DNA of 64,000 bases from Cliona cf. orientalis (lineage: Eukaryota > Porifera > Demospongiae > Clionaida > Clionaidae): positions 3,100,001-3,164,000 of the forward strand of contig OZ005696.1 in assembly GCA_963930775.1 (NCBI GenBank). Direction: 5' to 3'. Both the position numbers and the translations under genes were made by a program. The notes below the pieces were generated by a model. The model saw nothing but the letters and a program-made list of their open reading frames with translations, had not been told where the DNA came from and did not search any database. Of this stretch, positions 219 through 52,016 are shown piece after piece. Positions within the stretch are counted from its first letter, which is position 1; each line of letters opens with the position of its first letter.

Positions 219-3200
219 AGGTAGTTTTTGCTCCGGAATTGATTCGACTGCTTGAGGTGGTTGTATTGTAGCACTCTCATCACTGGCAGTAGCTTCCTCT
301 GTCCTTTGGGGTTTAAAGGTCGGTCGTCTGCTTCGATAGTTGAAACCAACCGAGCAATAGGTGGCAAATTTCATTTTAATTTCAGTATCTCCACACCTAT
401 AGAGTCATGATTACGATTTATTTATACACGTACTAACATACAGTTGTTCATACATGTACTGTAATTCGCGAATATTTAATGGCCAAAATATTTCATGTGA
501 TAATAATTATTCAAGTCAACTAATTTTCGGACAAACAACCCTGTACCGCATTATCATTAATATTGCACATATACTTCGCGCATTTAATTTTCACACTAGC
601 CAGGCTGTCCGATAATATTTTAACAACGAAATATTCACGATTGACGTTACTGCAGTGTATAGCCAGAATATTTGGTGGTCTGTCTTCGCAATTGCCAACA
701 AAATCCACCATAATTTCCTATATTATATATACGTATAGCAATCCCATATACTGAATCACCAAACTAAATCCAACTTTTTGAATGATGATTTTGGCCCAAC
801 TGCAAAATTAATTACATGTAGATTTGGCCACTATTTCCTGATGTACGGTTATTATTAAGCATTCCACCAGTGATGTGCAGTTATAGACACCCCTTGAATT
901 TAAAAACTAATAGGCCTTATTCCCTCTGGTCCCTTTCCTAGCTTTTCACACTAATGTTGAAGATTAGGCAGATGGCTTTGACCTGATTTTGTTTCACTAC
1001 TGCCACATTTATATACATGCAATGTCAGGGGTGTAGATACATGTACCTTTTTATAGGGGGGGGGGGGGTTGCCATGCCCATTTTTGTGACTGTGGCACTC
1101 CTACTCATTATTGCATCGTTACCACGTGGCATTTCATTACCCCGCGCGCATGCGCAAGGGGTAAAGCAATCGGTTTATATGTCTGTTGTTGTCGTTGTTG
1201 TCGTTGTCGTTGGCACGAAAATCGCCAGATCTCGAGTTCTAGGCGTCTGTGCGTGCTATAAGCACAACCAATCGGTAGATATCGGTGAAAAAAATGGTTT
1301 GTACGCGCTTCGAATTTCTCGAAAAAGCTTACTAGTTCTACAAATCGTGCATTTTCTGTTCAGCATGCCTGTGGTTTATCGACCACACCCACTCTTTTGG
1401 TATGCGGATGCGACTGCGCATGCTCAAGCACTGTGTTGTAAAGGGTCGTCACGTCATGAAACCGCTACATGTGTGCCTCATAGTATTGCAATACTACGCT
1501 AGAGTGGCTACAGGGCGCGCGGGGTATGTGCTCTACAGAGCTCTAGTTTTGTAAATTAATGGCTTGTTCCTCTTGAATGGTGGGTGGACATACATGTAGT
1601 TCAAATTCATGGTAGAAAATCTGGAGAGCTTCAGCCCCCTAGCCCCCCCCCCCCCCCCCCCCCCCCCCGCTCCCATTATCTACATCCTTGAATGTAGACT
1701 GTATGTATCTTTGCTGTGCTCAGGCTAACCTATATGTACACAGTAAATGTGCAGAGTGCCTAGCCACGTATAGCTAGGGGGTACGTAGGTTGTTTGTCCC
1801 ATTAGAACCATCTGCATGTATTATGTACATGTAAGTAGCTCACATATGGATGGGTAGCTTGTGGTACATTACTATGCATGCCATTTGCATGTCAACTTAT
1901 TTCTTATCCACGATGGGTATGTCACTCACCTCAAGTGGTGAGTGTATTTGTATTTGCCTATCATAGTTTCAGGGTCAGACGCTTCTTCCCCGCCCATCTC
2001 CAGGAGACAGATATCTTTATCCTTCTCTTCTTTTGGCATGTGCTCTGCCACACTGGTAGTTTGTTTGGCTGCTGCATCCTGTTCCTGGGCCTCCTTCTGC
2101 TGTATGGACTTTCTTGCCTTCCACTCAATCGTACCCGGCTCTTTCTCAACTACTAACTCATGTTCAATAAACCTATCAAAGGCCAAATTTGTACATACAT
2201 GTACATACATGCATATGTAATACATTATATACAATGTAGATAGGTGCAAGTACAATAAATATTATATGTACATGCACATCTACGTATGTGCATAATGGTT
2301 GTATATGCTTCAAGGAGTACACGTGTATGGTATTCACAATTAACAGTAGTCTACATGTACATGTATGATTCTATGAACTCCATTGAAGATATTACCATAG
2401 TTATTACATGTAGTACATAATTATATCCCAGCCAAGCGCCCACTACCTGGAAAGTGCCCACGTACTAAAATTTCAAGGACTCAGGAGTCAATGTAGCCGC
2501 TTCCATTCAAATGTATGCACTTAATATCCCAGATAAGCACTCTTAGATTTAATCACAAGTTGTGTTCTAGCATCCATGGGCACTACCTGGGACACTACAG
2601 AAATGTTAGCAGTAGCTATACTACATGATGCAGTAATTCCAAGTCATGTACCAAGAACATGATAATTAATAATTAACACTTCAACAAACCTTGATTTCCG
2701 AGGTACATATTCAGTGAATAGGCCCTTGACATTCTTCCCACCAATGGTCTTTGGAGTGAGTGTCAAGAGGACAGCATCCTTTCCAAAACACTCACTGATT
2801 TCATCAAGAAAGAGGTCAACTAAAAAATTATCACAATGATATGGAGTGGTTAATATAGGCCTCCAAACTGTGTGTAGGTACACATACATGTACATGTAGC
2901 TCTTACTGTAATATAAACCTGAAAAGATTGTTGCCTATGGTTAGGATTGTTGCTTAGGCATCAGTTTATACATGTGTATGTCAAGCCTATGGGCATTGTT
3001 GCTAGGATCTAAAGTTGTTAGACACTGTTTAGGAGGTTTGCGAGGGTTCTACTGAGCCCTGAGGTCTTCTAAATCACGTAGAAACCGACATATTAGTTGG
3101 ACACTGTTTAGGAGGTTTCTACGTGCGCTCAGGATTCTACATAGCCCTGAGGTCTTCTAAATCACATGGAAACCGACTAAACAGTGTCTAACAAGTTCAG

Positions 3201-6200
3201 ATCATAATAGTAAAACACTGTAATCGCCCGAGGATACAAAATTGTCATACAGGCGGAGGAAGATGCCGGGAAGAGGGGGAGCAGTATTTTACTGAAATAT
3301 AGTACATGTACATAAAGCTACCCTTAATTTAATTATCCAATAATGTGACCAGGGTTTTTGCCTGACTTACTCAAGGTCAAACAATGATTCCATACGGTGA
3401 TATGCATATGTACACTATTGATATCGTACTTGCATGGCTTCAGTGTCTCTGGAAAGGAGGGCACTGTCCCTACCTTAGGCTGGTTGGGGGGGGGGGGCAC
3501 GTGTCCCTGGTGCCCCCCTGCTTCCGCCACCTATGGAACTTTTAGGGGTTCTATCAGACTTGTAGGGGTACTATCACATATAGCTACATGTAGATACCTG
3601 CTAATGACGAATCAGATTCAATTTGCAGAATTTGTTATAACTATGATCTAATATTATTTATATCCCGTGTCCTAACCTGGAGGACACAAAAGATGCACTC
3701 TGCTACAAGTTCAGAAGGCCCACGATTGGTCAGAATTGCAGTGTCGTACCGTGTGCACAAACAAGGGTGGCCATAGACAGACCGCACGTTTATAGGCCTG
3801 CTAGCATGCATGCTCAGCATGCAAGCCACGTGCCACTGAGCCTCAAGGTCTGTACTTTGCCATAGACTAGTATGGTAGTAGATTTGACGTTTGAGCAGAG
3901 TGAGAACGTCACCATTGCCGTGGTGAGTTTGAGCTGCTGCTGTTGACTAGTCTCGTCCCCGGATCCCACCTCAGGTGCATATTAGCCACATTATCCCATT
4001 TTTGTGACATCAAACATACTTGTATATTGTATAAAAATGCCTATGAAAATATCAATGGCTGAGTACACCTTATGTAGATGTATGTACAATGTACGAACAA
4101 GTGTTATAATATTATTCCACTGTGCTGCTGATAGCTGAATTAAGTGGCTGTATATAACTGGTTGCCTTGCACTGTGACCATTATTTTACACAGGTTCAAT
4201 TGTACAGTCACACACAAAGAATCGAATACGGCCATCGTAATAAGCCCATTAGCTACAATTATTATTGTCCAAACCTGTTGTAAGATGTCCAGGATTGTCG
4301 TTGGGGATTGGTCCAACAACAATGAAACTTGTCTCGTATGCTGCGGTTCTATCAGGAGTTGGAAACCACAGATTCCGAAGAGGACCTTCCAACTGTACAT
4401 GTATGTCATATATGCATGTACAGAGTGGGGGTAACTATTATACATGTAGAGTACAATTTGTATACCTTAGTGTCACTAAAGTTAATTACACCTTAATTTA
4501 GCGAATTTGGCGACCTTTACCCAATTCGCTAAATTAAGATGAAGCCAAATATTTTTCGAGATGTATTATTCATGACATTGTATTGTGGTACATGCAAAAT
4601 CGCTAAATTAAAGTGCAGCTAAATCCTCTCTCCTGAAAATCACTAAATTAAAGTGCAGTTAACTTTAGTGACACTAAGGTATTATCATTAGTGAAAGTTA
4701 GATACTGTATGGCTGAAAATTTTCGATGGCCAAAAATTTCACTTTCATTTACATAGCCCAACTACACAGCTATGTATTTTTCACCAATGTTATAAAGGGT
4801 GCCACATGTTCTATACATGTGATTGCTAATATACCTGAAGATAAAAAATTAATTTCATCAACAATTAAGAGCAAGTATAACGTAGCCAAAATTTATTAAC
4901 TTGGTGAAAATTATTATTATAGCTATAATACATGTGTATGCTAGAATAGAAGCCTCCCCCAACTAAATGCCAGTCTCGTTTTGAAGCCGAGTCTTGAGAA
5001 TCAGGAAGGAAATAGAACTCCTGGCTTGTATTCAAGCATGATAATTATAATTACAGTATTATGGTATAACTCCAACACTGACTGACCTTGGTTCTGATTT
5101 CTAAAGGAGCCGACAGTATGTTCTCATTACAGGTTATGGAGACCATGTTGGTGCAGAATGCTGTGCACTGAGCAGGCTCCTCACCAGCCGCAGGGTCAAA
5201 GGTGGAACTGAAGTTCACCGAACCAACCTAACATGTGTGCATGTAGTGTATATACCGTGATAGCCAAAAAATTTGGCGGGGAATTAAATATGGCGGTTTG
5301 GCGGTCTATATTATAATCACCAAATTAAAATCCACAAAAATTTCCTATTCGCATATATACGTATGGCGATCCCATACCGAACCGCCAAATATAAATATTC
5401 TTGCAATCACGATTTTGGGCTCAACCACCAAATTTAATTCCTGCCAATATTTCTGGCTATACAGTACATGCGTAACACCAGGCTGGTATGTATACTCAAA
5501 ACCTTGGTAATAAAGACATCTAATAATAATATGATATTAATGGAGTGGTAAGGCACCACTATAAAACAGAAATTACCATACTATACATGTACAGACAGTA
5601 TCTCTCTAGTTGGCAAATCCCAGTTGCTATAATAAATTATAATCGACTGCATGTTTTGTATACCAGTATTGTGGTCATCTCAAATTCCATATGTAATTAT
5701 ATGTACATTGTGTATCAATGCTCAACTGTACTGTACAAGATAATGTCATGCATGTGATTGTATTTTGGGAGAGTAAACAGCTATATTGTAGCTTTAAAGC
5801 TCCACCTACACCGATATCAAAGGAAATTACTCGCTGAGGAGCTTAGCTTACAGTGCTCCAATTGAGTGGGGAGAACACTGCATTATATGTCTTACGTACC
5901 CAGTTGAAGGCTCTTGCTAGAGTTATTCCATACCCAATACCATCAAATGAGATAGAGAGGGCGTTCATGTTCCTGGGGTAGCGATTATAATCTTCATCGT
6001 CAGGATCGACTTTGGGCACTGGGGAGCAGGCAGCATAGCCGAGCACGGCTCCCAACAGAGTATCAGGGATTTTCTGTATTATAGTTCAGCACAATATATA
6101 GTTAGTTCAAGTCTAATTATGTGTATGCACGCTATTAGTATGAATGTGGTATGGGACAGTCCTACAAAATTTTAATTTCACAATAATATTATACCAATGT

Positions 6201-9045
6201 ATATTCAGTTGATACAGGTTTGTACTCCAAGTAGACTCCCTTCTTGCCTCCTTCTTTGCTGAACTTCCACTTCAGGTACTCCTCAGATGAGTCACCTTGT
6301 CTCTTGGAGCCCTCTTCTGCAAGGAATTTATATTGCTATTGTAACTAGAGCTTTCTTGAGCACAAAATCCTCCGAGTCGGTGCGATGCATGGCATTAGCT
6401 AGCTAGGGCTGGGGACATGGCTAATGTTATGCTTGCACAGCTAGGTTCAACAACTCACAGCAATAATGATATCCCTGGTGTGATACCGTCATAGGAGGGT
6501 GTATTGTATCGAGCACCACACTGTGGTGCCAGCTATTGCATGTCCAATGTTATCACTGCAAGTTGCTCACATATGGGTCCAAGTACTGCATGCATGCATG
6601 CATACATGTCGAGCTCCAAAGGACCTGGATACGAGGCTAGTACAAGCTTAGCTAGCCAGACTATTGTGCAAACGTTAGCGTGCTTGCAAGCTATCCAGCC
6701 TTAATAATATTATAGTCTGGGTGAAGGTACCGTATGGCGGGTAATTTTCATGGGGTGATAATTTTCGTTATTTTCGTGGTTGACTTGGCGATTACGAAAT
6801 TTTCCCACCCACAAAAATTAATGCCTACAGTGATATGCGAGTCCATGATGATGGACATGGCCACAAACATCGTGGTAGCACGGCCAATACTTCCCAGTAT
6901 TAACAAGCAACAGTAGCCACTGTCATCCAGCTGATGGCGTCTTCAATACTAATATTCTTCTATCTCATGCTATTTGTCCAAGTCTCTGTAGGTATGGCTT
7001 AGTAACAAAGAAGATCGCGAGCGCGTGTATTGATTACATCATCGCTTGTGCAGCAGTGCCACGCCCCTGGACTGGTTGCTGTCATGAAATTTAAAACCAC
7101 GAAAATTAATTTTGAGGGCCTTTAAGGACTTTCCCCAAAAATTAGCCCCAACGAAAATTACCCGCCATACGGTATATGTAGCTACAATGTATACTAGCTA
7201 GTCCAGCCTATGTTAGCAGCACTCCGCACAATTAGCTACGTAATAATATGCATGCACATGTGCGTGTATGCTTGATCAGCAGTTTTATTACACACAAAGA
7301 AAGTACAAGCCAAGAAGCAATGTTGATAGTCTACCATGATCAGTGATGAGTCAGTCGAGTTATAAGAACTATCACTAGTCATACATGTACACACTATATT
7401 ATAGTCTTCTTGAAATGAAACGATCACTGTCTCTTTTGTCCATTGTGAGCTGGTCAAGAAGCTAAGAAGGCCATGGAGGTCAGAAAATGTCACCAGAACT
7501 TCTGAATAAAGCATTTTCAACGAAATCCACACAATGTATAAGTTGAAATCAGCATAGAAAGCCTAATGATACCTGATTTTCAATGTATAAATGAGATATG
7601 TAACAGCTAGCTCGATAACAGACAGATAAACAGAGAGACACACAGAACCACTACCATAAACCTGCAGTGCATGCGCCGAGGGTTTATAACATTCTTTGCT
7701 GGATATAGCACACAACGTTTAATAGACAAAGTACTGGCTACCGGAGGGAACTAGGTGATCATAGGTTGCAGTAATGACAAAAGGATGTGCTACACGTATT
7801 TTGAATCATGTCTCCCTCCCCATCTACATAGAAATCTCTTTATCAGTTTTGGATCTAAAGGATTTAGATCATAAACAATGCTGTCTAAGAGTATAATATT
7901 ATAATACTCCTCACCACACTCACAAATACCATACCATCCTTTTCCTTATTGCGGGTATGCATGAGGTAGTGCATGTAAAGCCTCCTCCGGTCATCCTCCA
8001 ATAGATCCTTCAGTGCCAGACTCGTCTGAATATCCTTAAAAGTGTACCCCAACCCACTGTCCGTGCGAAACAGCTGCATCACCATGAAGTCCAAGTCAGA
8101 GCGAATTCTTGGCCCACCTCCAAATGTAAACCACGAAACAGTCGTAACATACTTAAGGACACAGCTACGCAGGAATCTACAGCAACTCCATTCAGGGATT
8201 GGCAATTGAGCTACGTAGTATTTAGCAGGCAGACCAGTGAGAAAGCTAAACTTGGCAACGTCCTTGTGCCCCAGCTCTGTGGCATGAGTAAAGAAGCACC
8301 AGAGAATTGCCCATGTCAGACACACCAGTAGAAGGCATATCAAGCAGAGATAGGCAACTCGTAAGTATGAGATCAGTACCAGCGTGTTGTAAATACAGAG
8401 TGCTTTGTCATTGAAAGGCCAAAATTCATCCGATGTTTGATTGCCACTTGGACAGAGGAAACCGTCCATAAAGTTACTGTCTTGAAAGATAAGGATGGCT
8501 GCTACAATACTTCCGGCGGTGAATAGCCACTGAAAAGTAAGTTTCAAGACATAGAAGAGAAATATCGTCGATCGTTTCTGTGTAGCAAACACAGTGGTAA
8601 GTAGCTCCACGATTTGAATATTCTGCTGATCACTGTGTACTCTGACAATTTTGACATCTGTCAAACGATTCAGGTTGCTCACTTGCGAGAAGAAAAACTC
8701 AAAATTCCCACGGTAGTGGTTCAACCACAGGTAGTGGGGAATGGCAATGAGGGCCCCTGTGATCATTATGTACACTGGAAAGTATTGCGTGAATGGTAGA
8801 TTACCAGAACAGAATGTATTGATGTATTCCTGTGATACATCACCAATTCCTTCTGGAAGACAGCACTCCACATTACTTCCTCTGACGAATTCAGTGATGA
8901 TATCTAGCGTTGTAAGGCCAACAATGGCAGAGATGACAAAGTGAGCAACGCTATCCCAGAAGAAGTCTCTCGGTTTGAGTGTCCCTCCTTCTCCATCGTT
9001 GTCTTTCCTGCCTTCAAGGTCTTTAATATTGACACTGGACCACAT
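219..9045 (-). CDS. Channel gene 1: pannexin/LRRC8-like four-pass domain plus unassigned C-terminal region (3' partial)
   Basis: Exons on the minus strand: 9045-7935, 6316-6195, 6073-5900, 5227-5087, 4392-4275, 2819-2690, 2172-1930, 396-219, all with GT-AG borders and matching phases. The last 17-codon exon must lie left of the window. Residues numbered from the Met shared by all copies: TM1 about 31-54, extracellular loop 1 55-85 with C61, C62 and C79, TM2 86-108 starting at a YFP motif, TM3 160-187, loop 2 188-222 with C198, C217 and glycosylation sequon NQT at 202-204, TM4 223-252, then a long cytosolic part. This topology with paired loop cysteines is that of pannexin/LRRC8-type large-pore channels, so a plasma-membrane anion or metabolite pore is inferred. 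Another in-frame ATG lies 9 bases upstream (9054). C62 is private to this copy; the others have Tyr. Leucine-rich repeats, usual in LRRC8, are absent. Confidence 0.8.
656..853. mobile_element. Old TTTGGCGG-type MITE shared by the paralogs (gene 1 intron 7)
   Basis: Diverged copy with TGTATAGCCAGAATATTTGG at left. Sister copies sit at the same place in gene 3 (46972-47158) and, truncated, in gene 2 (32337-32410), so it was present before duplication. Confidence 0.6.
1137..1548 (+). repeat. Dispersed ~420-bp repeat (ACCCCGCGCG family), copy 1
   Basis: It runs from TTACCCCGCGCGCATGCGC to CTCTACAGAGCTCTAG. Reverse-complement copies occur at about 34311-34727 and 27042-27530, and a partial copy at 32411-32710. 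It contains NRF-1-like GCGCATGCGC-type words and a GTTGTCGTT triplet run. An ORF across it (1017-1502) is not a gene. Confidence 0.65.
1643..1668 (+). repeat. Poly-C tract (26)
   Basis: Uninterrupted C run near the right end of the 1026-1690 element. Length is likely unstable and hard to sequence. Confidence 0.9.
3012..3196. repeat. Foldback repeat in gene 1 intron 5
   Basis: Same family as 28165-28300: GTTAGACACTGTTTAGGAGG arms facing CCGACTAAACAGTGTCTAAC, with an internal duplication of the CTGAGGTCTTCTAAATCACR segment. Confidence 0.65.
4463..4681. mobile_element. MITE with TACCTTAGTGTCACTAAAGT ends
   Basis: 219 bp in gene 1 intron 4. The ends are inverted repeats of at least 22 bp (TACCTTAGTGTCACTAAAGT and its complement at the right). 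The A+T-rich interior repeats GCTAAATTAA-type words. TA-type termini suggest a Tc1/mariner-like or related MITE. Confidence 0.75.
5253..5466. mobile_element. TTTGGCGG MITE, gene 1 intron 3
   Basis: TACCGTGATAGCC at left and GGCTATACAGTA at right, with interior AATTTGGCGGGGAATTAAAT and its inverted partner. A nearly intact relative is at 29007-29227. Confidence 0.75.
6728..7174. mobile_element. MITE with TACCGTATGGCGGGTAATTT ends, gene 1 intron 1
   Basis: 447 bp; the right end is the inverted ATTACCCGCCATACGGTA. Both ends also carry inverted ATTTTCGT words. There is no coding sequence of note. Confidence 0.78.
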
Positions 9046-18160: not shown

Positions 18161-18179
18161 GAAGTGTAAAAAAATCCAA

Positions 18180-20485: not shown

Positions 20486-20520
<35 letters not shown>

Positions 20521-29380: not shown

Positions 29381-29415
<35 letters not shown>

Positions 29416-35400: not shown

Positions 35401-38400
35401 GCATGCGCATGCGCTACATTTTCCGTATAATTTACCGTAAAGTGTCCGTACACTAATATCTACCACGTGCTGACAAGTGAAACGGTCCATGTGTCTAAAG
35501 AATACGGAATGACCTCCCGACCTTTGTACTAGCGATCACGCTAAACGCGTGCCCACGCTGTTCAGAGGCCTTTGTCGATCGATGGACAATATCGCTCGGG
35601 CCACCTCGAAATCTCGCTCGAACTTCCAACTGTCTAAGCCTGCCATTACTAGGTACGTTGAGCACGATGCATTAAGGTCAAAGGACAAGTATACTAGACA
35701 GTATCCGTACGTAATCGGATTATTCAGAATCTGAATAATAACAGCGCATGCGCATGCAGTGGATACCAGGCCTTCCTTCCCCCTCCCCCCTCAGAAGGCC
35801 TGGGGACGAGGCTAGTAGTCTACATGATTCTATGAACTCCATTGAAGATAATACCATAATAATTATAATAGTGCATAGCAGCATGTATACATCCCAGCCA
35901 AGCACCCACTCCCAGGAAAGTGCCCACGTACTAAAATTTCAAAGATAGCCACTTCCATTCAAATGTATATTATGCACTTTATAACAAGTTGTGTTCTAGC
36001 ATCCATGGGCACTACCTGGAATACTACAGTAGTGCTAGTAGTATAATTATACTGCACAGTATAACATAATGCCAAGTCATGTACCAAGAACATGCCATGA
36101 TAACACTTCAACAAACCTTGATTTCCGAGGTATATATTCAGTGAATAGGCCCTTGACATTCTTCCCACCAATGGTCTTTGGAGTGAGTGTCAAGAGGACA
36201 GCATCCTTTCCAAAACACTCACTGATTTCATCAAGAAAGAGGTCAACTAAAAATGACATGGAGATGTTAAAATAGGCCTCCAAGCCGTGTATAAATACAC
36301 ATAGCTCTTAAAGACATCAATGGCTTAATGAATACACTCATGTACATGTATGAACAAGTGTTATAAATATTATGTTCCACTGTACACACATTAGCCACAA
36401 AGATTAGAGGCTGAAAATCAGTGGCTGTGATAGAGATGTGCTGCTTGTAGCTGAACTAAGCGGCTGCATAATTAGTTTCCTTGCACTGTGACTATTTTAC
36501 ACAGATTCAATTGTACAGTCACACACAAAGACTAGACCTCTAGTTGAATACCGTACGGCCATAGTAAGCCCATTATCTATAACTAGACCAAACCTGTTGT
36601 AAGATGTCCAGGATTGTCGTTGGGGATTGGTCCAATAACAATGAAACTTGTCTCGAATGCCGTGGTTGCGTCATGAGCTGGAAACCACAGATTCCGAAGA
36701 GGACCTTCCAACTGTACATGTATGTCATACATGCACGTATAGAGTGGGGGTAACTGTTGCAGAGTACAATAATAGCTATTATCATTAACTAGAGCTCATA
36801 GAGCACATGCATGTACCCGGCCGGCCAGTCCACATGCCATGGCAATATCACCATAGATTATGAATATCTAATATATAATATCACCCATGGCCAATGACCA
36901 TGCCTTCTCTTTCTTTGAAGTTTATTCTCTTGCTATTCACCAACTTTTTTGTTCCCTTCTGAGATCCATGATCACAAATGACATTAATTTTGTGCTAGAA
37001 GCATGTTGTAGAGAAGCTCAAGTATGCGCTATAAAGGTACTAGGTGGGCATGTCCGTTGTAGGCATGTAACGACGCAAATGTGATCCCGACCCGTTTGCG
37101 ATACGCCGGTATGTACACCGCCGCGATCACTGGACGATATGGATGGGAGGGGCTGGGAGGTCAGGGGATGGGTTGCGAATGGTTAGCAGGGTTAGTCTCT
37201 AGGGTTTGCGTATACGTGGACTGGAGAGGCTGGGAGGTCTGGGGCTGGGTTACGAATGGTTAGCAGGGTTAGTGTGGGAGGGGCTGGATTGCATAGGGTT
37301 TGTCTATAAAATAGTTGAAATAACGACTGCCAGCAGCAACGACAGTGGTGGCCGAGTGGTTGGGCTCTTATGTATGGGACGGAATAGAGCGGGTTCAAAT
37401 CTTGCCGTACACTTTGACTTTTTTTTTCCCCTGTCGAATTTTTCTAAGTGTTGATAGATCGCATTTGCGTTAGATCGCATTTGCATCGTAACAAGGCATA
37501 CTCACATGATTTGTAGCTTCCCTATAGGTATTGCCTAGGATAAGAACGAGACAGGAGGTGTTTTTTCGCTGTCTTACAGTGTCACCATTTTATACCATTT
37601 ATTGACCCTACTTTCACTTAGCTAAAATTAATGTTGAGATTTGCCAATTTTTATGCTGACAGACAACAGACAAATTGCTTTACCCCTTGCTGCGCATGCA
37701 CGCACACGGGGTAATGATGGTTAGATACTGTATGGCTGAAAATTTTCAATGGCCAAAAAATACGTTTATATAGCCCAGCTACATAATTTCACCAATGCAA
37801 TGAAGGTTGACACATGTTCTACATGTACTGTACGTGATTGCTAATAGCTACACCTGCAGATAAAAAATTAATTATACCAACAAGAACAGGTATAATGGGT
37901 GAAATTTTTTAACTTGGTAAAAATTGTTACTGTAGCTAAATGTATAATAATAATATGATTATTGCTCAAATAGAAACCTCCCCCAAATAAATGCCAGTCT
38001 AGTTTTGAAGCCGAGTCTCGAGAATCAGGAAGGAAGTAGTAGCCCAGGCTTGTATTCGAGCATGATAATTATACGGTATTATGGTAACTCAAAGGCTGAC
38101 TGACCTTGGTTTTGGTTTCTAAAGGAGCCGACAGTATGTTTTCATTATAGGTTATGGAGACCATGTTGGAGTAAAATGCCTTGCACTGAGCAGGCTCCTC
38201 ACCAGCCGCAGGGTCAAAGGTGGAACTGAAGTGCACCGAACCAACCTAAAAATTAAATTAATGTGTACATGTAGTATATATAACACCAGGCTGGTATATA
38301 TACTCAAAACCCCGGTAATAAAGGCATCTAAATTAATAGAGTGGTGAGGCATCACTACAAAAATTACCATACTATACAGACAGTATCTCTCTAGTTGGCA

Positions 38401-40786
38401 AATCCCAGTTGCTATTATGTAATAGTTATTGACCAACTCCCAAGGTTTGTATGCAGTATAGAAGCACAAATCCCGAGGGCAAAGCCCGAGGGATGAGTGC
38501 TTCTATACTGCATACAAAGCGAGGGATTGGTCAATAACTATTTTCTAGCCCATTATTTCCATGGATACAATAAACATGTTTTTAACCCCCAAGAACTGTA
38601 TGAATGTTTGCCCTGGCCCTCAGGAACTGTATAATAGTAAACATATGGACATGAGCCCTACAAGGAGGGACTGTATCACATATATAGTACCTTGTATACC
38701 TTAGTAACCACATAGCAACGGGCTAGAAATTATTGTAATCGACTTCATGTTTGTATACCAGTATTGTGGTCATCTCAAATTCCATATGTAGCTACGGTAC
38801 GATACATACTACATGTACATTGTGTAGCATTTTGGGAGAATAAACAGCTATAATATTATACACAATAATATTATAGTAGCTTTCAAGCTCCACCTACACC
38901 GACATCAAAGGAAATTACTCACTGAGGAGCTTAGCTTGCAGTGCTCGAAGTAGGGAGAACACAGCATAATAAGTCTTACATACCCAGTTGAAGGCTCTTG
39001 CTAGAGTTGTTCCATACCCAACACCATCAAATGAGATAGAGAGAGCGTTCATGATCCTCGGGTAGCGGTTATAATCTTCATCATCAGGATCAACTTTGGG
39101 CACTGGGGAGCAGGCAGCATAGCCGAGCACGGCTCCCAAAAGAGTATCAGGGATTTTCTGTATTATAGTTCAGCACTATAATTATAGTTAGTGTATGCAC
39201 ACTATTAGTATGAATGCGGTACGGGAGAGTCCTACAAAATTTTTGTACGAAAATTTCACAATAATATTATACCAATGCATATTCAGCTGATACAGGTTTG
39301 TATTCCAAGTAGAGTCCCCTCTTTCCTCCTTCTTTACTGAATTTCCACTTCAGGTACTCGTTAGATGTGTCACCTTGTTTCTTGGAGGCCTCTTCTGCAA
39401 GGAATTCATATTGCTATTAATATTGTTTGCTGGCTATAGCACATAAAGTTTAATGACAAAGTAGCTACCAGCTATTGGAGGGGACTAGGTGATCATAGGT
39501 TGAGGTAATGACAAAAGGATGCACTACACGTATGTTGAATCATGTCTCCCTCCCCACCTCCATAGAAATCTCTCTATCAGTTTCGGATTTAAAGGATTTA
39601 GATTGTAATATAATACCGTCTATATACCACACCAAGAGTATATAATACTCTTGACCACACTCACAAATACCATACCGTCCTTTTCCATCATGCTGTTATG
39701 CTTGAGGTAGTGGATGTGAAGTCTCCTCTGGTCATCCTCCAACAGATCCTTCAGTGCCAGACTCGTCTGAATATCCTTAAAGGTGTACCCCAATCCACTG
39801 TCCGTGCGAAACAGCTGCATCACCATGAAGTCCAAGTCAGAGCGAATTCTTGGCCCACCTCCGAATGTAAACCACGAAACAGTCGTAACATACTTAAGGA
39901 CACAGCTACGCAGGTATCCACAGCAACTCCATCCTGGGATTGGCAATTGTGCTACGTAGTATTTAGCGGGCAGACCAGTGAGATAGCTAAACTTGGCAAC
40001 GTCCTTGTGCCCCAGCTCTGTGGCATGAGTAAAGAAGCACCAGAGAATTGCCCATGTCAGACACACCAGTAGAAGGCATATCAAGCAGAGATAGGCAACT
40101 CGTAAGTATGAGATCAGTTCCAGCGTGTTGTAAATACAGAGTGCTTTGTTGGTGAAAGGCCAAAATTCGTCCGATGTTTGATTGCCAATTGGGCAGAGGA
40201 AACTGTCCATGAAGTTACCGTTTTGAAAAAGAAGGATGGTTGCTACAATACTTCCGGCGGTGAATAGCCACTGAAAAGTAAGTTTCAAGACATAGAAGAG
40301 AAATATCGTCGATCGTTTCTGTATAGCAAATACAGTGGTAAGTAGCTCCACAATTTGTATATTTTGCTGATCACTGTGTACTCCGACAATTTTGACATCC
40401 GTCAAACGATTCAGGTTGCTCACTTGCGAGAAGAAAAACTCAAAATTCCCACGGTAGTGGTTCAACCACAGGTAGTGGGGAATGGCAATGAGGGCCCCTG
40501 TGATCATTATGTACACTGGAAAGTATTGCGTGAATGGCAGATTACCAGAACAGAATGTATTGATGTATTCCTGTGATATATCTTCAATTCCTCCTGGAAG
40601 ATAGCACTCCACATTACTTCCCCTGACGAATTCAGTGATGATATCTAGCGTTGTGAGGCCAATAATGGCAGAGATGACAAAGTGAGCAACGCTATCCCAG
40701 AAGAAGTCTCTCGGTTTGAGTGTCCCTCCTTCTCCATCGTTGTCTTTCCTGCCTTCAAGGTCTTTAATGTTGACACTGGACCACAT
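26902..40786 (-). CDS. Channel gene 2: pannexin/LRRC8-like four-pass domain plus unassigned C-terminal region (complete)
   Basis: Nine exons: 40786-39676, 39394-39273, 39157-38984, 38245-38105, 36711-36594, 36246-36117, 35019-34774, 31152-30975, 26955-26902. They sum to 2274 nt, predicting 757 residues ending in KEKF and a TAA stop. Exon lengths equal those of gene 3 throughout and those of gene 1 except exon 7 (246 against 243, one extra Glu codon). The first exon encodes the four TM segments; the following exons encode roughly 390 cytosolic residues, ending in a charged Glu/Lys/Gln-rich stretch (exon 7) and an Arg-rich RSRRP motif (exon 8). The gene is stretched to 13.9 kb by transposons: intron 7 is 3.6 kb and intron 8 is 4.0 kb, so the last exon is isolated and easily missed. 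The frame is open throughout. Channel function is inferred from topology and loop cysteines; transported substrate is unknown. Confidence 0.82.
27042..27530 (-). repeat. Dispersed ~420-bp repeat (ACCCCGCGCG family), diverged copy
   Basis: Starts AACTAGAGCTCTGTAGAGC and ends near GCGCGCGGGG; the interior is diverged from the other copies. It lies 90 bases upstream (plus-strand right) of the last exon of channel gene 2. Confidence 0.55.
27690..28815. repeat. Cluster of long palindromic repeats
   Basis: It holds foldbacks at 27811-27944 and 28165-28300 (GACACTGTTTAG...GTAGAAACC arms), a 340-bp fold at 28344-28683 whose arms include GATGCACAGTGCAACAGTAG and its complement, and four tandem ACTTGTAGGTCTCTATGA units (28687-28770). 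TTGTAACAAATACTGTGATC at the left and its complement at the right bracket the cluster. A partial copy recurs at 29440-29665 and a relative at 3012-3196. Confidence 0.65.
29007..29227. mobile_element. TTTGGCGG MITE nested in a 5-bp-TSD element
   Basis: 221 bp, TACCGTATAGCCGGAAAATT at left and AATATTTCCGGCTATACAGTA-type right end, strongly inverted. It is inserted inside the element at 28920-29428. Confidence 0.78.
29383..29412 (+). repeat. Poly-C tract (30)
   Basis: Near the right end of the 28920-29428 element, the same relative place as in the 1026-1690 element. Confidence 0.9.
29910..30741. repeat. Related longer repeat with nested 5-bp-TSD element
   Basis: Begins AACTAGAGCTCATCG and ends near GCATGCGGGGTAATGA. 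It aligns with 36788-37716 (shared words CTTTGAGGTTTATTCTCTTG-like, GACCCTACTTTCRC). A 394-bp element is nested at 30032-30425. Confidence 0.5.
30032..30425. mobile_element. TIR element CAGTGGTGTAGGC, 5-bp TSD CAAAT
   Basis: Ends CAGTGGTGTAGGCAG and CTGGCTACGCCCCTG; CAAAT flanks both sides. The sister repeat at 36966-36985 shows the uninterrupted site. Confidence 0.7.
31374..31543. mobile_element. Nested palindromic element
   Basis: 170 bp; arms of about 50 bp with AATTAATCACACACTTCA and TACAATTAGGGCAGTAATCA, complemented at the right. Confidence 0.65.
31723..32157. mobile_element. Nested MITE with GCAGGAAATTTTCGTATGGT ends
   Basis: The left GCAGGAAATTTTCGTATGGT and right complement end in GTTATACGGTA. 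The style (inverted ATTTTCG words) resembles the 6728-7174 element. Confidence 0.65.
32337..32410. mobile_element. Truncated old MITE in gene 2 intron 7
   Basis: The left half (TTATAGCCAGAAAATTTGGC onward) matches 656-710. It is cut off exactly where a partial ACCCCG-type repeat (32411-32710) begins. Confidence 0.55.
32826..33057. mobile_element. Foldback element CAAGAGTATATAATAGAGAG
   Basis: 232 bp; a second inner inverted pair, GGCAAGGTCATTACCTTTAT and its complement, extends the stem. Confidence 0.6.
33344..34170. mobile_element. Counterpart TIR element in gene 2 intron 7
   Basis: It matches the 1026-1690 element in both ends and in flanking text (ACCACGTGGCATT near the break and ATTAATGGCTTGTTCC after it). 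It contains a different nested element (33494-34032). Confidence 0.6.
33494..34032. mobile_element. MITE with TACCGTACCCTCGCGAAAGA ends
   Basis: 539 bp; right end the inverted CTTTCGCGAGGGAACGGTA. A diverged relative starts near 53489 (CTCGCGAAAGAGGACCCA). Confidence 0.72.
34311..34727 (-). repeat. Dispersed ~420-bp repeat (ACCCCGCGCG family), copy 2
   Basis: Reverse complement of the 1137-1548 repeat, from AACTAGAGCTCTGTAGAGC to CGCGCGGGGTAAC, within gene 2 intron 7, 37 bases past exon 7. Confidence 0.65.
35047..35223. mobile_element. MITE with TACCGTAGTGTCCTGGGTAA ends
   Basis: 177 bp; the right end is the inverted ACCCGGGATACTACGGTA, with a second internal GGGTGCTTGCCCAGG copy. Confidence 0.72.
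35344..35814. mobile_element. Mutator-type MITE with ~70-bp TIRs and 9-bp TSD
   Basis: 471 bp, beginning TAGCCTCGTCCCCAGGCC with a perfect long inverted end. GTAGTCTAC flanks both ends. The homologous sites in gene 1 (near 2350) and gene 3 (near 48110) are empty. Confidence 0.8.
36788..37716. repeat. Second copy of the longer AACTAGAGCTC repeat with a different nested insert
   Basis: Same outer sequence as 29910-30741, in gene 2 intron 4. Here the insert is a 428-bp element (37066-37493) at a place that is empty in the sister repeat. Confidence 0.5.
37066..37493. mobile_element. TIR element carrying a tRNA-like promoter and a minisatellite
   Basis: Ends TGTAACGACGCAAATG and CATTTGCATCGTAACA, flanked by AGGCA on both sides (37061-37065 and 37494-37498). 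The interior holds two copies of a roughly 95-bp GGGAGG-rich repeat (37139-37290) and a tRNA-like segment (37342-37413; A-box TGGCCGAGTGG, B-box GGTTCAAATC, then a T8 run). The related site at 30.52 kb lacks it. Confidence 0.65.
38421..38542. mobile_element. Foldback insert in gene 2 intron 3
   Basis: The arms AATAGTTATTGACCAA and TATGCAGTATAGAAGCAC are complemented after a GAGGGCAAAGCCC centre. A block of about 315 bp (38415-38730) is missing at the matching spot in gene 1 (near 5633). Confidence 0.65.
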
Positions 40787-43616: not shown

Positions 43617-43883
43617 TGCTTTCTCCTAGGACTTTGGAGTATGTAGTTAGTACAGTCTTCCCTTTGATAGATCACAACGTCTAGGAAGATCGATATAATA
43701 CTCTAATCGGCAACTAGTATTTCTTCATCTGATTGTACAGCCCTTAAAAATGTCTTGATGCTATGCCGGAAGACTTGTTCAACCTATATACGTCAAAAGA
43801 TGCTCATTGACGTCAACAGGTACTCATTGTCTTATCACATCTCTGCCACAATTTCATTGGGATGTTCAGCTCACCAGCCAATC

Positions 43884-43930
43884 AGAGAACTGCAAAGCCG
43901 CAGATAGAGCCAACAGAACATGTTTCCACC
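43884..43930 (-). promoter_or_regulatory. Conserved CCAAT block upstream of Cys-rich gene C
   Basis: CCAATCAGAGAACTGCAAAG followed by GCAGATAGAGCCAACA is nearly identical to 23326-23372. It lies about 270 bases upstream of the copy C ATG. Promoter role is inferred from conservation in otherwise diverged flank. Confidence 0.4.
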
Positions 43931-43939
43931 ATTATGGAG

Positions 43940-46274: not shown

Positions 46275-46380
46275 GGACTCTGGACGTAATAATAATATTA
46301 TTATTATTATTGTTGTGATTCACAAATTGAAAGAAAAAACTCTGCTATAATATAAAAACTGCATGTGTTCTGTAAACCCA

Positions 46381-49300
46381 TTAAAATTTCTCTTCTGCTG
46401 TTTGCTCCACCTTTCTCTGTCTCACTGAAACATCCTATATACAAGACAAAAATGTGAGAACATCACTACTATAATGTAATTAACTCATCTTGGGTGAGGG
46501 ACTATTTAGTGGGAAGATTTTTTTATTTCTGCATATCCAGGAATCAAATGGGATACATATTAAATCTAGTTTTCTAATTAAAGACCCCATCTAACTTTTC
46601 ACTATCAGCATCCCTGAAAACAGATTACAAGTGGAACCCCTCTATAATGACATCGACACCCGCTATAATTATATATGTAATATTATTATATATACAGGTA
46701 CTTTCAAGTTTTACGAGAAAACTTACAGGTGGTTTTTGCTCCGGAATCAATTCGACTGCTTGTGGTGGTTGTATTGTAGCATTCTCGTCACTGGCAGTAG
46801 CTTCCTCTGTCTTCTGGGGTTTAAAGGTCGGTCGTCTGCTTCGATAATGGAAACCAGCCGACTGATAGGTGGCAAACTTCATCTTAATCTTAGTATTTCC
46901 ACATCTAGAGTCATGATTACAATTTTTTGCTAAATTGACTGTGTACTATAGAACATGGTTGTACATACATGTACCGTACTGTATAGCCAGAAAATTTGGC
47001 AGTAGTGGTTGCACAATTGCAATTGCCAACAAATACTGCGATATGTTGGCAACCCCATACTGAACCACCAACTTAAAATCCAATTTTTTGCAATGGTGAT
47101 TTTGGATCCAACCACAAATTAATTTGATTTGGCCAATATTTCCAGCTATATGGTATTAAGCATTCCACCAGTGATGTGTGATTACTTTGTTTTAGACACC
47201 CTTGAAACCATATCTCTTTGATGGTGTTTGGTGGTTAGTCTACAAACCCAACTGTGGTTTTAGACAACCCTTAGTCTTGCGAGATGTCAGGCTAACCTAT
47301 ATGCAGCAAAATCGTGCAAAGTGCCTGCCTAGCCTTGAAAACTAGCTAGGGGTGGGTTAAAAAGCTCTTTTATCTCACCTACAAGTTATATGATATTGTA
47401 TATGCATGTACATGTACATATATGTAAGTAGCCATAGATAGGGGCAGCATGTGGTACATGTAACGTTAACTATGGATTCACATGTCAACTTATTTCTTAA
47501 AATCCCATGATTGGCATGTCACTCACCTCAGGAGGTGGGAGTATTCGTGTTTGCTTGTCTTAGTTTCAGGGCCAGACGCTTCTTCTTCCCCGCCCATCTC
47601 CAGGAGACGGATATCTTTATCCTTCTCTTCTTTTGGCACGTGCTCTGCCACACTGGCAGTTTGTTTGGCTGCTGCATCCTGTTTCTGGGCCTCCTTCTGC
47701 TGTATGGACTTTCTTGCCTTCCACTCAATCGTACCCAGCTCTTTCTCAACTAGCAAGTTATGTTCAACAAACCTGTCAAAAAGGCCGAAAAGTGTACACA
47801 CATAATACATTAATTATAGCAAGGGCTTATAGACTCCTAAAGGAGAAGAGGGCATGTAAGTAGGCACCTAACAAAATTCATATCCAAGCTAAAATCCTCA
47901 ATACCCATAGTGCAGTCCAGATTATTGTATACAAACCACTGAATTTTGCTATATAGGTATATAATATACAGCATAGTATGGCAGTTACATGCCATTATAG
48001 ATATAATAGGTGTATGTACAATAAATAAGTACATCTACATGTATGTATGTATGTGCACAATGGTTGTATGCTTTCAAGGAGTACACGTGTATGGTATTCA
48101 CAATTAACAGTAGTCTATGAACAGTCAACTCCGTTGAAGATGTTACCATAGTACATGTATCCCAGTCTAGCACCTACTCCCAAGAAAGTGCCCACGTACT
48201 AAGGGTCAATGTAGCCACTTCCATTCAAATGTATGCACTTTAGTATTCTAGCATCCATTGGAACTACCCGGCAATTAAACTATGGTAATGATAGCTGTAC
48301 TGCACAGTAATGCCAAGTCACGTACAAAAATCGATAAGTAACACTTCACAAACCTTGATTTCCGAGGTACATATTCAGTGAATAGGTCCTTGACATTCTT
48401 CCCACCAATGGTCTTTGGAGTGAGTGTCAAGAGGACAGCATCCTTTCCAAAACACTCACTGATTTCGTCAAGAAAGAGGTCAACTAAAAATGACATGGAG
48501 AGGTTAATTAAAAGTAGGCCTCCAAGCCGTGCATAAGTACACAATACATGTAGCTCTTATTGTATAAAGACAAATACACTCATGTAAATGTATGACATTG
48601 TACGAACAAGTAACATTATGTTCCACTGTACACACGTTAGCCCCAATGATTTTCAGCTGAAAATCAGTGGCTGTAATAGAGATGTGCTGCTAGTAGCTGA
48701 ACTAAGCAGCTGTATAACAAAAGGATGGTTGCCTTGCACTGTGACCATTATTTACACAGGTTCAATTGTACCGTCACACACAAAGACCTTAGCCATAATA
48801 ATTATATAGTAAGCCCATTAGTATTATTGTCCAAACCTGTTGTAAGATGTCCAGGATTGTCGTTGGGGATTGGTCCAACAACAATGAAACTTGTCTCGTA
48901 TGCCGTGGCTCTGTCAGGAGTTGGAAACCACAGATTCCGAAGAGGACCTTCCAACTGTATGCCATACACACATGTGTAGAGTGGGGGTAATTATTATAGA
49001 AAGTGCCCTCGTACTAAGGGTCAAGGTTTGATATGATACTGTATGGCTGAAAATTTCCGATGGCCAAAAATTTCACCTATGTCGCCCAGCTACATATTAT
49101 AATAATATTATTAAAAATAACCTTTCACCAATGCAGTAAAGGTTGCCACATGTTCTATGACACTGTACTACTGTAGATAAAATTTCACTAACAAGAAACA
49201 AGTATATAGCGAAATTGGTCTGGCAAAAGTTTTTACTATGCCATGGTAACCCAATACTGACTGACCTTGGTTCGGGTTTCTAAAGGAGCTGACAGTATGT

Positions 49301-52016
49301 TCTCGTTACAGGTTATGGAGACCATGTTGGTGTAGAATGCCTTGCACTGAGCAGGCTCCTCACCAGCCACAGGGTCAAAGGTGGAACTGAAGTTCACCGA
49401 ACCAACCTAAAAATTAAAAAAACATAGAGTATACGTAACACATTAGCTTTGGCTGGTATGTACATATAGCTAGACATATAATAAAATGTGCAGTGTAACA
49501 CATTTGCTTTGGCATCGGGTCGGTATGTATATCCACGGACTCAAAGAAACAGGGCTACATAATAATATTATTATTATGAAAGGGACGCCCCCTGACTGCC
49601 TGGAAATAATGCGTCTAATATTATTGAGTGGTACATGCATGTATAACACCGCTAAGCTAAGCTCAACAATAACTATACAGGCAGTATCTGTCTAGTTGGA
49701 AAATTCCATTTAAATGACATGAATTTGCAATTGGGAATTGGTTGTTTTGTATACACTGAGTATTGTGATCATCTCAAATTTCATATGTAGCTACAGTGTA
49801 ATGCATACTACTGTGTTTCAACAATGCATAGTACTGTGTGTGTATCAATTTAACTCTTCCGGACATGCATACATCTACGACCACTAATAGTGTCTTCCTC
49901 AGAAATTTCTTAAGGTAATTGGATGGAGTAAACAACTGCGTCATAGCTTTAAGCTCCACCTACTTGGATATCTATTCACTGAGGCTGCACTTAACTTGAA
50001 GTAAAAGTACAGTATACTTGGAGAACACAGCATAATATTATACATCTTACATACCCAGTTGAAGGCTCTTGCTAGAGTTGTTCCATACCCAACACCATCA
50101 AATGAGATAGAGAGGGCGTTCATGATCTTGGGGTAGCGATTATAATCTTCATCGTCAGGATCTACTTTGGGCAGTGGGGAGCAGGCAGCATAGCCAAGCA
50201 CGGCTCCCAACAGAGTATCAGGGATTTTCTGTATTATAGTTCAGTAAAAGTAATGTGATACATTAATTTTAGTCTCAAATCTAATAATGTGTATGTACAT
50301 TATTAATAATATTATACAGAACAGTCCTACAAAATCTTTATATGTAAATTTCACATTAATTATTATTATACCAATGTATTTTCAGTTGGTACAGATTTGT
50401 ATTCCAAGTAGAGTCCCTTCTTGCCTCCTTCTTTGCTGAACTTCCACTTCAGGTACTCCTCAGACGTGTCCCCTTGTTTCTTGGAGGCCTCTTCTGCAAG
50501 GAATTAATAGTGTAATAATACTCTTTGCTGGCTATAGCACACAAAGTATCGGCTACCGGAGGGGACTAGGTGACCATAGGTTGAGGTAATGATAAAAGGA
50601 TGTCATGGACCAACATGCAACCCAATTATATAAGGTTTTATATGTCAGGAAGGTATTCAAGAACATATTCATAAGAATATCGGTAATGTATAGTACAATG
50701 TGAGCAAGACATCTAATTCAGCATCAAAATGTTCTGCTGGTACAATAGTTACTATACAATGAACAGCTGGCATTCAAACTATACATGTCTCCCTCCCACC
50801 TCCATTGAAATCTCTATCAGCTCCAGATTTAAAGGTAGCATCAATCGTAACATAATGCAGTTCTTAGACTATAACCATACTCACAATACTTATTCAAGAC
50901 CATACCGTCCTTTTCCTTTTTGTTGGTATGCTTGAGGTAATGGATGTGAAGCCTCCTTTGGTCATCCTCCAACAGATCCTTCAGTGCCAGACTCGTCTGG
51001 ATATCCTTAAAGGTGTACCCCAATCCACTGTCCGTGCGAAACAGCTGCATCACCATGAAGTCCAAATCAGAGCGAATTCTTGGCCCACTTCCAAACGTAA
51101 ACCACGGAACAGTTGTAACACACTTAAGGAGACAGCTACGCAGGTATCTACAGCAACTCCATCCTGGGATTGGCAATTGAGCTACGTAGTATTTAGCCGG
51201 CAGACCAGTGAGATAGCTAAACTTGGCAACGTCCTTGTGCCCCAGCTCTGTGGCATGAGTAAAGAAGCACCAGAGAATTGCCCATGTCAGACACACCAGT
51301 AGAAGGCATATCAAGCAGAGATAGGCAACTCGTAAGTATGAGATCAGTACCAGCGTGTTGTAAATACAGAGTGCTTTGTCATTGAAAGGCCAAAATTCAT
51401 CCGATGTTTGATTGCCACTTGGGCAGAGGAAACCGTCCATAAAGTTACTGTTTCGAAAGATAAGGATGGCTGCTACAATACTTCCGGCAGTGAATAGCCA
51501 CTGAAAAGTAAGCTTTAAGACATAGAAGAAGAATATTGTCGATTGTTTGTATGTTGCAAACGCAATGGTAAGCTGCTTCACGATTTGAATATTCTGCTGA
51601 TCACTGTGTACTCCGACAATTTCGACATCCGTCAAACGATTCAGGTTGTTCACTTGCGAGAAGAAAAACTCAAAATTCCCACGGTAGTGGTTCAACCACA
51701 GGTAGTGGGGAATGGCAATGAGGGCCCCTGTGATAATTATGTACACGGGAAAGTATTGCGTGAATGGCAGATTACCAGAACAAAATGTATTGATGTATTC
51801 CTGTGATACATCACCAATTCCTTCTGGAAGATAGCACTCCACATTACTTCCCCTGACGAATTCAGTGATGACATCTAGCACTGTGAGGCCAACAATGGCA
51901 GAGATGACAAAGAGAGCAACACTATCCCAGAAGAAGTCTCTCGGTATGAGTGTCCCTCCTTCTCCATCGCTGTCTTTCCTGCCTTCAAGGTCTTTAATGT
52001 TGACACCAGACGACAT
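46381..52016 (-). CDS. Channel gene 3: pannexin/LRRC8-like four-pass domain plus unassigned C-terminal region (complete, compact)
   Basis: Nine exons: 52016-50906, 50493-50372, 50228-50055, 49406-49266, 48954-48837, 48483-48354, 47772-47527, 46904-46727, 46434-46381, total 2274 nt and 757 residues, stop TAA at 46383-46381. The start chosen is the ATG aligned with the other copies (residues MSSGVNIKDLEG); a further in-frame ATG exists at 52172, but the sequence between is not shared with genes 1 and 2. Domain order is as in the sister copies: short N-terminus, TM1, Cys-bearing loop, TM2, short cytosolic loop, TM3, loop 2 with two Cys and an NQT sequon, TM4, then the unrecognised cytosolic region. 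It has few intronic insertions and is the best template for defining the family. An NRF-1-like palindrome lies 58 bases upstream of the ATG and a GC-rich transposon begins about 420 bases upstream. Confidence 0.84.
46972..47158. mobile_element. Old TTTGGCGG-type MITE, gene 3 intron 7
   Basis: TACCGTACTGTATAGCCAG at left to CCAGCTATATGGTA at right. Same intron and offset from exon 8 as in gene 1. Confidence 0.62.

What the first reader, a model, noticed from the sequence alone, without database searches (positions are those of the whole stretch)
219..52016. Tandem trio of large-pore channel genes with a non-LRR cytosolic region
The sequence shows three genes with identical nine-exon structure, each starting with a four-pass domain whose two extracellular loops have paired cysteines, a YFP motif at TM2 and an NQT sequon in loop 2. 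Established knowledge: this topology defines pannexin/innexin/LRRC8-type large-pore channels, and LRRC8 proteins carry leucine-rich repeats after it. Here the pore domain is followed by about 500 residues without leucine-rich repeats. Sponges are generally described as lacking gap-junction-type innexins, so a local expansion of such a channel would be a lineage-specific innovation. The family assignment is by eye.
Basis: partly seen in the sequence, partly recalled or inferred. Interest (0 to 1): 0.8.

Follow-up and report, generated by a model that had tools for sequence, protein, structure and literature searches.

The report
Sponge pannexin-like channels, new cytosolic domain
This sponge genome carries a family of genes whose pore-forming half looks like a distant relative of pannexin and innexin membrane channels, which sponges are generally said to lack, joined to an uncharacterised domain inside the cell; such channels could be how sponge cells release signals such as ATP.

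Summary
Three same-strand genes (9045..219, 40786..26902, 52016..46381) share nine exons with matching phases; gene 1's last exon lies 1.4 kb outside the window. They belong to at least 15 intact four-pass paralogues in this genome, which carries a silicatein gene, so it is a siliceous sponge. Profiles of the four-pass exon match only pannexins and innexin-6 in the PDB (best 2.6e-7; reversed control 0.49). Of two non-overlapping subsets, one gives the same families significantly, the other weakly. The window genes' loop cysteines have frog pannexin-1 spacing (18 and 19). No member reaches the Pfam Innexin or LRRC8 cut-off, and a whole-genome scan with the Innexin model returns only this family, below threshold: perhaps why sponges are reported to lack it. 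The cytosolic domain (about residues 371-610) has no leucine-rich repeats and no Pfam or PDB match, but divergent paralogues share it. All 15 members have an outer-loop glycosylation sequon, which favours single-membrane channels over gap junctions. Best reading: a sponge branch of the pannexin/innexin/LRRC8 superfamily with its own regulatory domain.

The parts
46381..52016 (-). gene 3, complete: 9 exons at 52016-50906, 50493-50372, 50228-50055, 49406-49266, 48954-48837, 48483-48354, 47772-47527, 46904-46727, 46434-46381; 757 aa
26902..40786 (-). gene 2, complete: 9 exons at 40786-39676, 39394-39273, 39157-38984, 38245-38105, 36711-36594, 36246-36117, 35019-34774, 31152-30975, 26955-26905 plus stop
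219..9045 (-). gene 1: 8 exons in the window at 9045-7935, 6316-6195, 6073-5900, 5227-5087, 4392-4275, 2819-2690, 2172-1930, 396-219; exon 9 and stop lie 1.4 kb beyond the left edge
50906..52016 (-). gene 3 exon 1: whole four-pass pore domain (aa 1-370); hydropathy peaks near aa 33-51, 90-108, 169-187, 230-248; loop Cys 61/79 and 198/217; NQT 202; PHYLW 103-107
39676..40786 (-). gene 2 exon 1: pore domain
7935..9045 (-). gene 1 exon 1: pore domain
47739..50493 (-). gene 3 exons 2 to the start of exon 7: conserved cytosolic domain (about aa 371-610), shared with divergent paralogues, unknown to Pfam and PDB by sequence
46381..47738 (-). gene 3 rest of exon 7 to exon 9: charged tail (aa 611-757) holding a short motif (HxYxxLxCGxT) with a likely counterpart in paralogue L035
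13439..13648 (-). degenerate fragment of a further pore exon (58-62% identical, 2 stops)

Best explanation
These genes encode a sponge branch of the pannexin/innexin/LRRC8 large-pore channel superfamily. SHOWN: gene structure; purifying selection on exon 1; four hydrophobic passes with two cysteines per outer loop, at pannexin spacing in the window genes; profile similarity that falls only on pannexins and innexin-6; no LRRs; and a conserved cytosolic domain of unknown type in their place. INFERRED: subunits assemble in a ring (6 to 8) around a wide pore; the loop cysteines lock ECL1 to ECL2 as in pannexin 1; glycans on the loops keep two cells' hemichannels from docking, so each ring works as a single-membrane channel that lets ions and small metabolites, plausibly ATP, out of the cell; the cytosolic domain and charged tail sense an intracellular cue and gate the pore, the place that the LRR disc holds in LRRC8 and the C-tail in pannexin 1. 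At the pore constriction the window genes carry Asp followed by Val or Ile where pannexin 1 has Trp74-Arg75, so pannexin-1-like anion selectivity is not expected.
For: Profile of 15 members against PDB: 32 of 32 hits at E<=10 are pannexins (31) or innexin-6 (1), best 5.5e-7. A profile of 8 of the 15, one or two per branch: 32 of 32, best 2.6e-7, aligned from TM1 to TM4 with both cysteine pairs in register. Group A alone (10): 30 of 30 pannexins, best 1.8e-4. Groups B and C alone (5): 4 of 4 pannexin or innexin-6, but weak, best 0.35. The same 8 reversed: best 0.49. Pfam at E<=10: Innexin hits 5 of 15 members (0.0011, 0.0013, 0.013, 0.065, 0.13) and the LRRC8 Pannexin_like model 3 of 15 (0.0011, 0.31, 5.1). 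Two cysteines in each outer loop in 15 of 15, plus one extra in gene 1; spacing 18 in loop 1 in 9 of 15 and 19 in loop 2 in 11 of 15, window genes included, as Cys66-84 and Cys248-267 in frog Panx1 (PMC7108861 passages). TM2 Pro in the form PxxxW in 9 of 15; the Trp in 15 of 15. K/R summed over 15 members: 42 in the two outer loops (about 70 residues each member) against 159 in the inner loop plus the 40 residues after TM4 (about 90). Outer-loop sequon in 15 of 15, shuffled expectation 8.6. P2X receptor exons are present in the same genome, and ATP acts through P2X in sponge contraction (PMC11883242 passages).
Against: No member reaches a Pfam cut-off (best 18.7 of 25 bits); the three group B members match neither model. 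Gene 3 exon 1 alone hits neither PDB nor Pfam large-pore models. A GPCR in this genome matched the Connexin model at 1e-5, so single E-values near 1e-3 prove little for membrane proteins. The reversed profile also touched only pannexin-1, at 0.49 and 12.6 bits, so part of the forward 33 bits may be composition. Groups B and C alone are not significant. In L019 and L021 the first loop-2 cysteine does not fall in the common alignment column, and loop spacing varies from 18 to 25 and 19 to 23 over the family. No structure, oligomer, expression or current was measured. Sequons do not strictly exclude gap junctions: some functional innexins have them (PMC8769644 passages). Sequon counts are not independent among related rows, and the loops are rich in Asn.
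Confidence: 0.7

Rival explanations
1. LRRC8-type volume-regulated channel: the cytosolic domain replaces the LRR disc as the sensor, and the channel passes chloride and osmolytes during cell swelling.
For: One member matches the LRRC8 Pannexin_like model at 0.0011, two more only at 0.31 and 5.1. The architecture, a pore followed by a large C-terminal cytosolic domain, is LRRC8-like rather than pannexin-like.
Against: No LRRC8 chain was hit in PDB at E<=10 in the four forward profile searches (that LRRC8 chains are in that copy is recalled, not checked). No LRRs. A whole-genome scan with PF12534 found nothing at E<=0.001, but it had no positive control.
Confidence: 0.2
2. True gap-junction channels: hemichannels dock between cells and give sponges electrical or metabolic coupling.
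For: Weak Innexin Pfam matches in 5 of 15. Some innexins with sequons form gap junctions (PMC8769644 passages).
Against: All 15 members have an outer-loop sequon. Gap junctions have not been identified in sponges (PMC11883242 passages). PDB matches favour the pannexins over innexin-6, though pannexin entries far outnumber innexin entries in those lists.
Confidence: 0.1
3. Unrelated four-pass membrane family; the match reflects shared composition and the chance placing of cysteines.
For: Sub-threshold Pfam scores; a Connexin-model hit on a GPCR shows that such errors occur; the reversed profile still scores 12.6 bits on pannexin-1.
Against: Forward hits are confined to one superfamily and are about 20 bits and six orders of magnitude better than reversed; both cysteine pairs and the TM2 Trp fall in register.
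Confidence: 0.08

Closest known systems
Vertebrate pannexins (PANX1-3)
   Same: Four passes, two Cys per outer loop with the 18/19 spacing of frog Panx1 (window genes), outer-loop sequon, best PDB match (6vd7, 2.6e-7).
   Different: No Trp74-Arg75 pair; adds a conserved cytosolic domain of about 240 residues; below the Pfam cut-off.
Innexins
   Same: Weak Pfam Innexin match from about TM2 to TM3 in 5 of 15; TM2 Pro and PHYLW ending in most of group A; innexin-6 is the only other PDB family hit.
   Different: Below cut-off; outer-loop sequon in 15 of 15; long extra cytosolic domain.
LRRC8 (VRAC)
   Same: Pore domain followed by a large C-terminal cytosolic domain; weak PF12534 match in 3 of 15.
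   Different: No LRRs; no PDB match to an LRRC8 chain.
Connexins, CALHM
   Same: Four passes, large-pore topology in general (recalled).
   Different: Two, not three, Cys per loop; no PDB match; in the genome scan the best Connexin-model hit is a GPCR, the other nine sub-threshold hits were not followed, and CALHM gave nothing, without a positive control.

Membership tests
Pannexin/innexin/LRRC8 superfamily | four TM segments with two Cys in each of the TM1-2 and TM3-4 loops | tested here: met
   Two Cys per loop in 15 of 15 (gene 1 has a third in loop 1); four hydropathy peaks in 12 of 15 at the cut-off used, three in L010 and L015, a fifth weak one in L014
Pannexin/innexin/LRRC8 superfamily | specific sequence-profile similarity | tested here: met
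   32 of 32 PDB hits, best 2.6e-7; reversed control 0.49; groups B and C alone not significant, 0.35
Innexin/pannexin family (Pfam PF00876) | score at or above the curated cut-off (25 bits) | tested here: not met
   best 18.7 bits, L008; genome scan best 16 bits
Innexin/pannexin family (Pfam PF00876) | conserved proline in TM2 | tested here: inconclusive
   Pro in 9 of 15, window genes included; absent in L011, L013-L015, L019, L021
Pannexin 1 | Trp74-Arg75 constriction in ECL1 | tested here: not met
   Asp69 followed by Val or Ile in the window genes; no Trp-Arg between the loop-1 cysteines in 15 of 15
Pannexin (non-junctional) | N-glycosylation sequon in an outer loop | tested here: met
   15 of 15; occupancy not testable
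LRRC8 | leucine-rich repeats after the pore | tested here: not met
   no LRR in gene 3 by Pfam or motif; no Pfam family in the 9 cytosolic domains scanned
LRRC8 | PF12534 at its cut-off | tested here: not met
   best 18.5 of 25 bits, L009
Gap-junction channel | docking and cell-to-cell transfer | not testable with these tools
   needs paired-cell recording or dye transfer
Connexin | three Cys per outer loop | tested here: not met
   two per loop in 14 of 15; gene 1 has three in loop 1 and two in loop 2
Superfamily fold | predicted or solved fold and ring oligomer | not testable with these tools

The most novel reading that the evidence does not exclude
Sponges did not lack this superfamily: they kept an old, divergent branch of pannexin/innexin/LRRC8-type channels, fused to a regulatory domain of their own, which works as glycosylated ATP- or metabolite-releasing hemichannels upstream of P2X receptors in whole-body contraction. 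The superfamily would then date from the common ancestor of sponges and other animals.
Probability: 0.4. Interest if true: 0.88.

Novelty: new variant of a known kind. Interest (0 to 1): 0.74.

Why it matters
Six papers state that innexins or pannexins have not been found in sponges (PMC6391747, PMC9949713, PMC9816575, PMC4685580, PMC8769644, PMC5412853; passages read). How nerveless sponges pass signals between cells is open: gap junctions have not been identified, yet ATP acting on P2X receptors is needed for the contraction reflex (PMC11883242; passages read). A pannexin-like family in a sponge gives candidate genes for the missing release channel. If it is old, it would push the superfamily back to the base of animals; and it offers a new cytosolic module on a large-pore channel. 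It also suggests why it was missed: the genes score below standard thresholds.

Tried and rejected
The cytosolic part was searched alone (phmmer, best E 1.1, MaoC-type dehydratase) and as a profile (best 0.3, riboflavin kinase): rejected as chance. A Connexin-model hit on C15 turned out to be a rhodopsin-type GPCR; the nine weaker Connexin-model hits were not followed. In the prokaryotic and viral collections no relative was found, but each scan used only two short peptide patterns. The idea that the trio alone is the innovation was rejected, since 12 more intact members exist. Group B loci (L036, L037) gave no convincing cytosolic domain. One paper found by search had only an unrelated mention of pannexin, and the Ephydatia genome paper has none.

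Rows left out before counts: of 23 pore matches only the 15 intact ones entered A1; A8 and its reversed control use 8 of these 15; of 12 cytosolic stretches prepared three near-identical ones (L043-L045) were left out of A3. Gene models of divergent paralogues come from a home-made spliced aligner that forces weak tails, so only the part up to about gene 3 residue 610 was used, and of L038 and L039 only the better-aligned start. In the close copy L045 exon 7 is shorter and the model has an extra tiny exon; in L043 and L044 only eight exons were found in the stretch fetched.
Full report
WHAT IS THERE. On the minus strand of the window three genes lie head to tail. Gene 3 (52016..46381) has nine exons with GT-AG introns and encodes 757 residues. 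A spliced protein-to-genome alignment gives gene 2 (40786..26905 plus stop) and gene 1 (9045..219 in the window) the same exon sizes (exon 7 is 3 bases shorter in gene 1) and phases. Gene 1's ninth exon, with its stop, sits 1.4 kb beyond the left edge. Exon 1 of genes 2 and 1 is 89% and 91% identical to gene 3 in protein. Pairwise dN/dS over exon 1 is 0.21-0.41 among the six close copies (the trio and copies on contigs C3, C4, C5), which points to purifying selection.

THE FAMILY IN THE GENOME. The window is C8:3100001-3164000 of a 216.8 Mb assembly. A search with the 370-residue exon 1 gave 23 matches (a lower bound by the tool's own note): 15 intact four-pass exons, one broken copy on C9 seen as four pieces, three other fragments (window 13.4-13.6 kb, C2, C11) and one piece that belongs to an intact gene. 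A tree of the 15 (rooted at the midpoint, for drawing only) sets group B (L013-L015, on C11) apart and joins the six close copies, each with full support. The rest of group A (L008-L011) and group C (L019, L021, joined to L011 at 86/95) is less well resolved, and the program warns of long branches. In all 15 the pore domain is an uninterrupted reading frame; where modelled, the cytosolic part is split over several exons.

WHICH ORGANISM. Of 116 papain-family matches in the genome I read four stretches. One, on C12, has CGASYAF where the other three have CGSCWAF or CGSCWSF. Ser for the catalytic Cys is the mark of silicatein (recalled), so this is a siliceous sponge, probably a demosponge.

IS THE PORE DOMAIN A PANNEXIN/INNEXIN RELATIVE? 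Gene 3 exon 1 alone hits no such model. Profiles do. All 15 members against 177,635 distinct PDB sequences: 32 hits at E<=10, 31 pannexin chains and innexin-6, best 5.5e-7. Eight diverse members: 32 hits, same families, best 2.6e-7. Group A only: 30 hits, all pannexin, best 1.8e-4. Groups B and C only: 4 hits, pannexin and innexin-6, best 0.35, not significant alone. The same eight members reversed: five hits, all pannexin-1, best 0.49 and 12.6 bits against 33 forward. So some of the score may be composition, but about 20 bits are not explained by it. No LRRC8, connexin or CALHM chain appeared in the four forward searches. In Pfam at E<=10 the Innexin model matches 5 of 15 members and the LRRC8 Pannexin_like model 3 of 15, each best at 0.0011, several of them weak, all below the curated cut-offs; group B matches neither. 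Scanning the whole genome with the Innexin model returned three matches at E<=10 (0.377, 7.39, 8.36), all in this family: at standard thresholds this sponge would be scored as lacking innexins. As a warning, a rhodopsin-type GPCR in this genome matched the Connexin model at 1e-5, so I rest the claim on specificity, the reversed control and residue positions, not on one E-value.

RESIDUES. Two cysteines lie in each outer loop in 15 of 15, with one extra in gene 1. In the window genes the spacings are 18 (61-79) and 19 (198-217); over the family loop 1 has spacing 18 in 9 of 15 (range 18-25) and loop 2 spacing 19 in 11 of 15 (range 19-23). In L019 and L021 the first loop-2 cysteine is outside the common alignment column. 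Frog pannexin 1 has disulfides Cys66-Cys267 and Cys84-Cys248, spacings 18 and 19 (PMC7108861 passages). The alignment to pannexin 6vd7 puts both pairs, the FFP/YFP start of TM2 and the Trp at the end of TM2 in register. TM2 proline followed by xxxW is present in 9 of 15; the Trp in 15 of 15. A conserved TM2 proline is described for innexins (PMC5412853 passages). Basic residues are scarce in the outer loops (42 K/R over 15 members, about 70 residues each) and commoner in the inner loop and just after TM4 (159, about 90 residues each), as expected if the cysteine loops face outward; the N-terminus is acidic and does not add to this. Pannexin 1's Trp74-Arg75, needed for anion preference, is Asp69 followed by Val or Ile in the window genes.

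GLYCOSYLATION. Each of the 15 has at least one N-X-S/T in an outer loop; loop shuffles expect 8.6. The sites move between loop 1 and loop 2 across groups. Rows are related, so the excess is suggestive only. In pannexins such glycans block docking; some innexins with sequons still form junctions (PMC8769644 passages).

THE CYTOSOLIC DOMAIN. Residues about 371-610 are conserved with divergent group A members (30-40% identical to gene 3) and, in their first half, with group C (23-27%). There is no Pfam match for any of the nine stretches tested, and the best PDB match is 0.3. A genome search with the gene 3 C-terminal part gave 46 matches, all beside pore exons of this family; that search missed the domain in L008, L010, L011 and group C, so a distant copy in another setting could also have been missed. 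Segments such as FIVVGP...HLTTVDLFLDEI...VLLTLTP look like an alternating alpha/beta fold (by eye). The tail (611-757) is charged. No LRR was found. It is best called a family-specific domain of unknown fold.

HOW IT MOST LIKELY WORKS. Inferred: a ring of subunits, a wide pore, loops locked by two disulfides, glycans that favour single-membrane channels, gating by the cytosolic domain. The same genome has P2X receptor exons on C10 and C2. In Ephydatia, blocking P2X stops glutamate- and ATP-triggered contractions, and the authors note that gap junctions have not been identified (PMC11883242 passages). In the passages I read no ATP-release channel is named for sponges, and the words pannexin, innexin and hemichannel do not occur in that paper's main text. 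A pannexin-like channel is an obvious candidate. This link is a hypothesis.

WHAT IS KNOWN. Six papers state that innexins or pannexins were not found in sponges (PMC6391747, PMC9949713, PMC9816575, PMC4685580, PMC8769644, PMC5412853; passages only). Searches of the held library listed no title that reports such a gene in a sponge (listed 25 of 63, 7 of 7, 12 of 12, 20 of 23, 7 of 7 and 15 of 223 papers). Most subscription papers are not held: Abascal and Zardoya 2012 is not, and Leys 2015 I saw only as a citation. So: a new variant of a known kind; superfamily membership well supported; filing as innexin, pannexin or LRRC8 proper not met.

Noticed in passing
45020-46222: Tandem array, period 422 bp, 2.8 copies, whose unit borders hold a 47-nt near-palindrome (GGGACTCTGGACGT...ACGTCCAGAGTCCC); looks like tandem insertions of a small DNA transposon just downstream of gene 3.
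   Followed up: partly
59991-63583 (+): Three overlapping open frames; the first two match beta-helix or Chlam_PMP repeats and the third looks hydrophobic by eye, probably parts of one multi-exon membrane protein.
   Followed up: no
24375-24755 (-) and 10700-11275 (+): Reverse-transcriptase remnants: the first matches RVT_1 at 9.1e-7, just under the cut-off; the second only by eye, with no such Pfam match.
   Followed up: partly
43110-43350 (-): Short Cys/His-rich open stretch ending in a stop between genes 3 and 2, like a zinc-binding exon (by eye).
   Followed up: no
L051 (C15:7143900-7145500): A rhodopsin-type GPCR that matches the Connexin Pfam model at 1e-5 (25.9 bits): an example of chance similarity among membrane proteins.
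   Followed up: yes
genome contigs C19, C12, C16: Arrays of papain-family (cathepsin/silicatein) genes, e.g. C19:4508728-4535937; the one C12 stretch read has the Cys-to-Ser change of silicatein.
   Followed up: partly
genome C10:212595-227697 and C2:4611609-4616151: Clusters of P2X receptor exons, probably several genes in tandem on C10.
   Followed up: no
C11:7691500-7707000 (L036, L040): A second tandem array of pore genes (group B): two intact copies and a third one with broken frames.
   Followed up: partly
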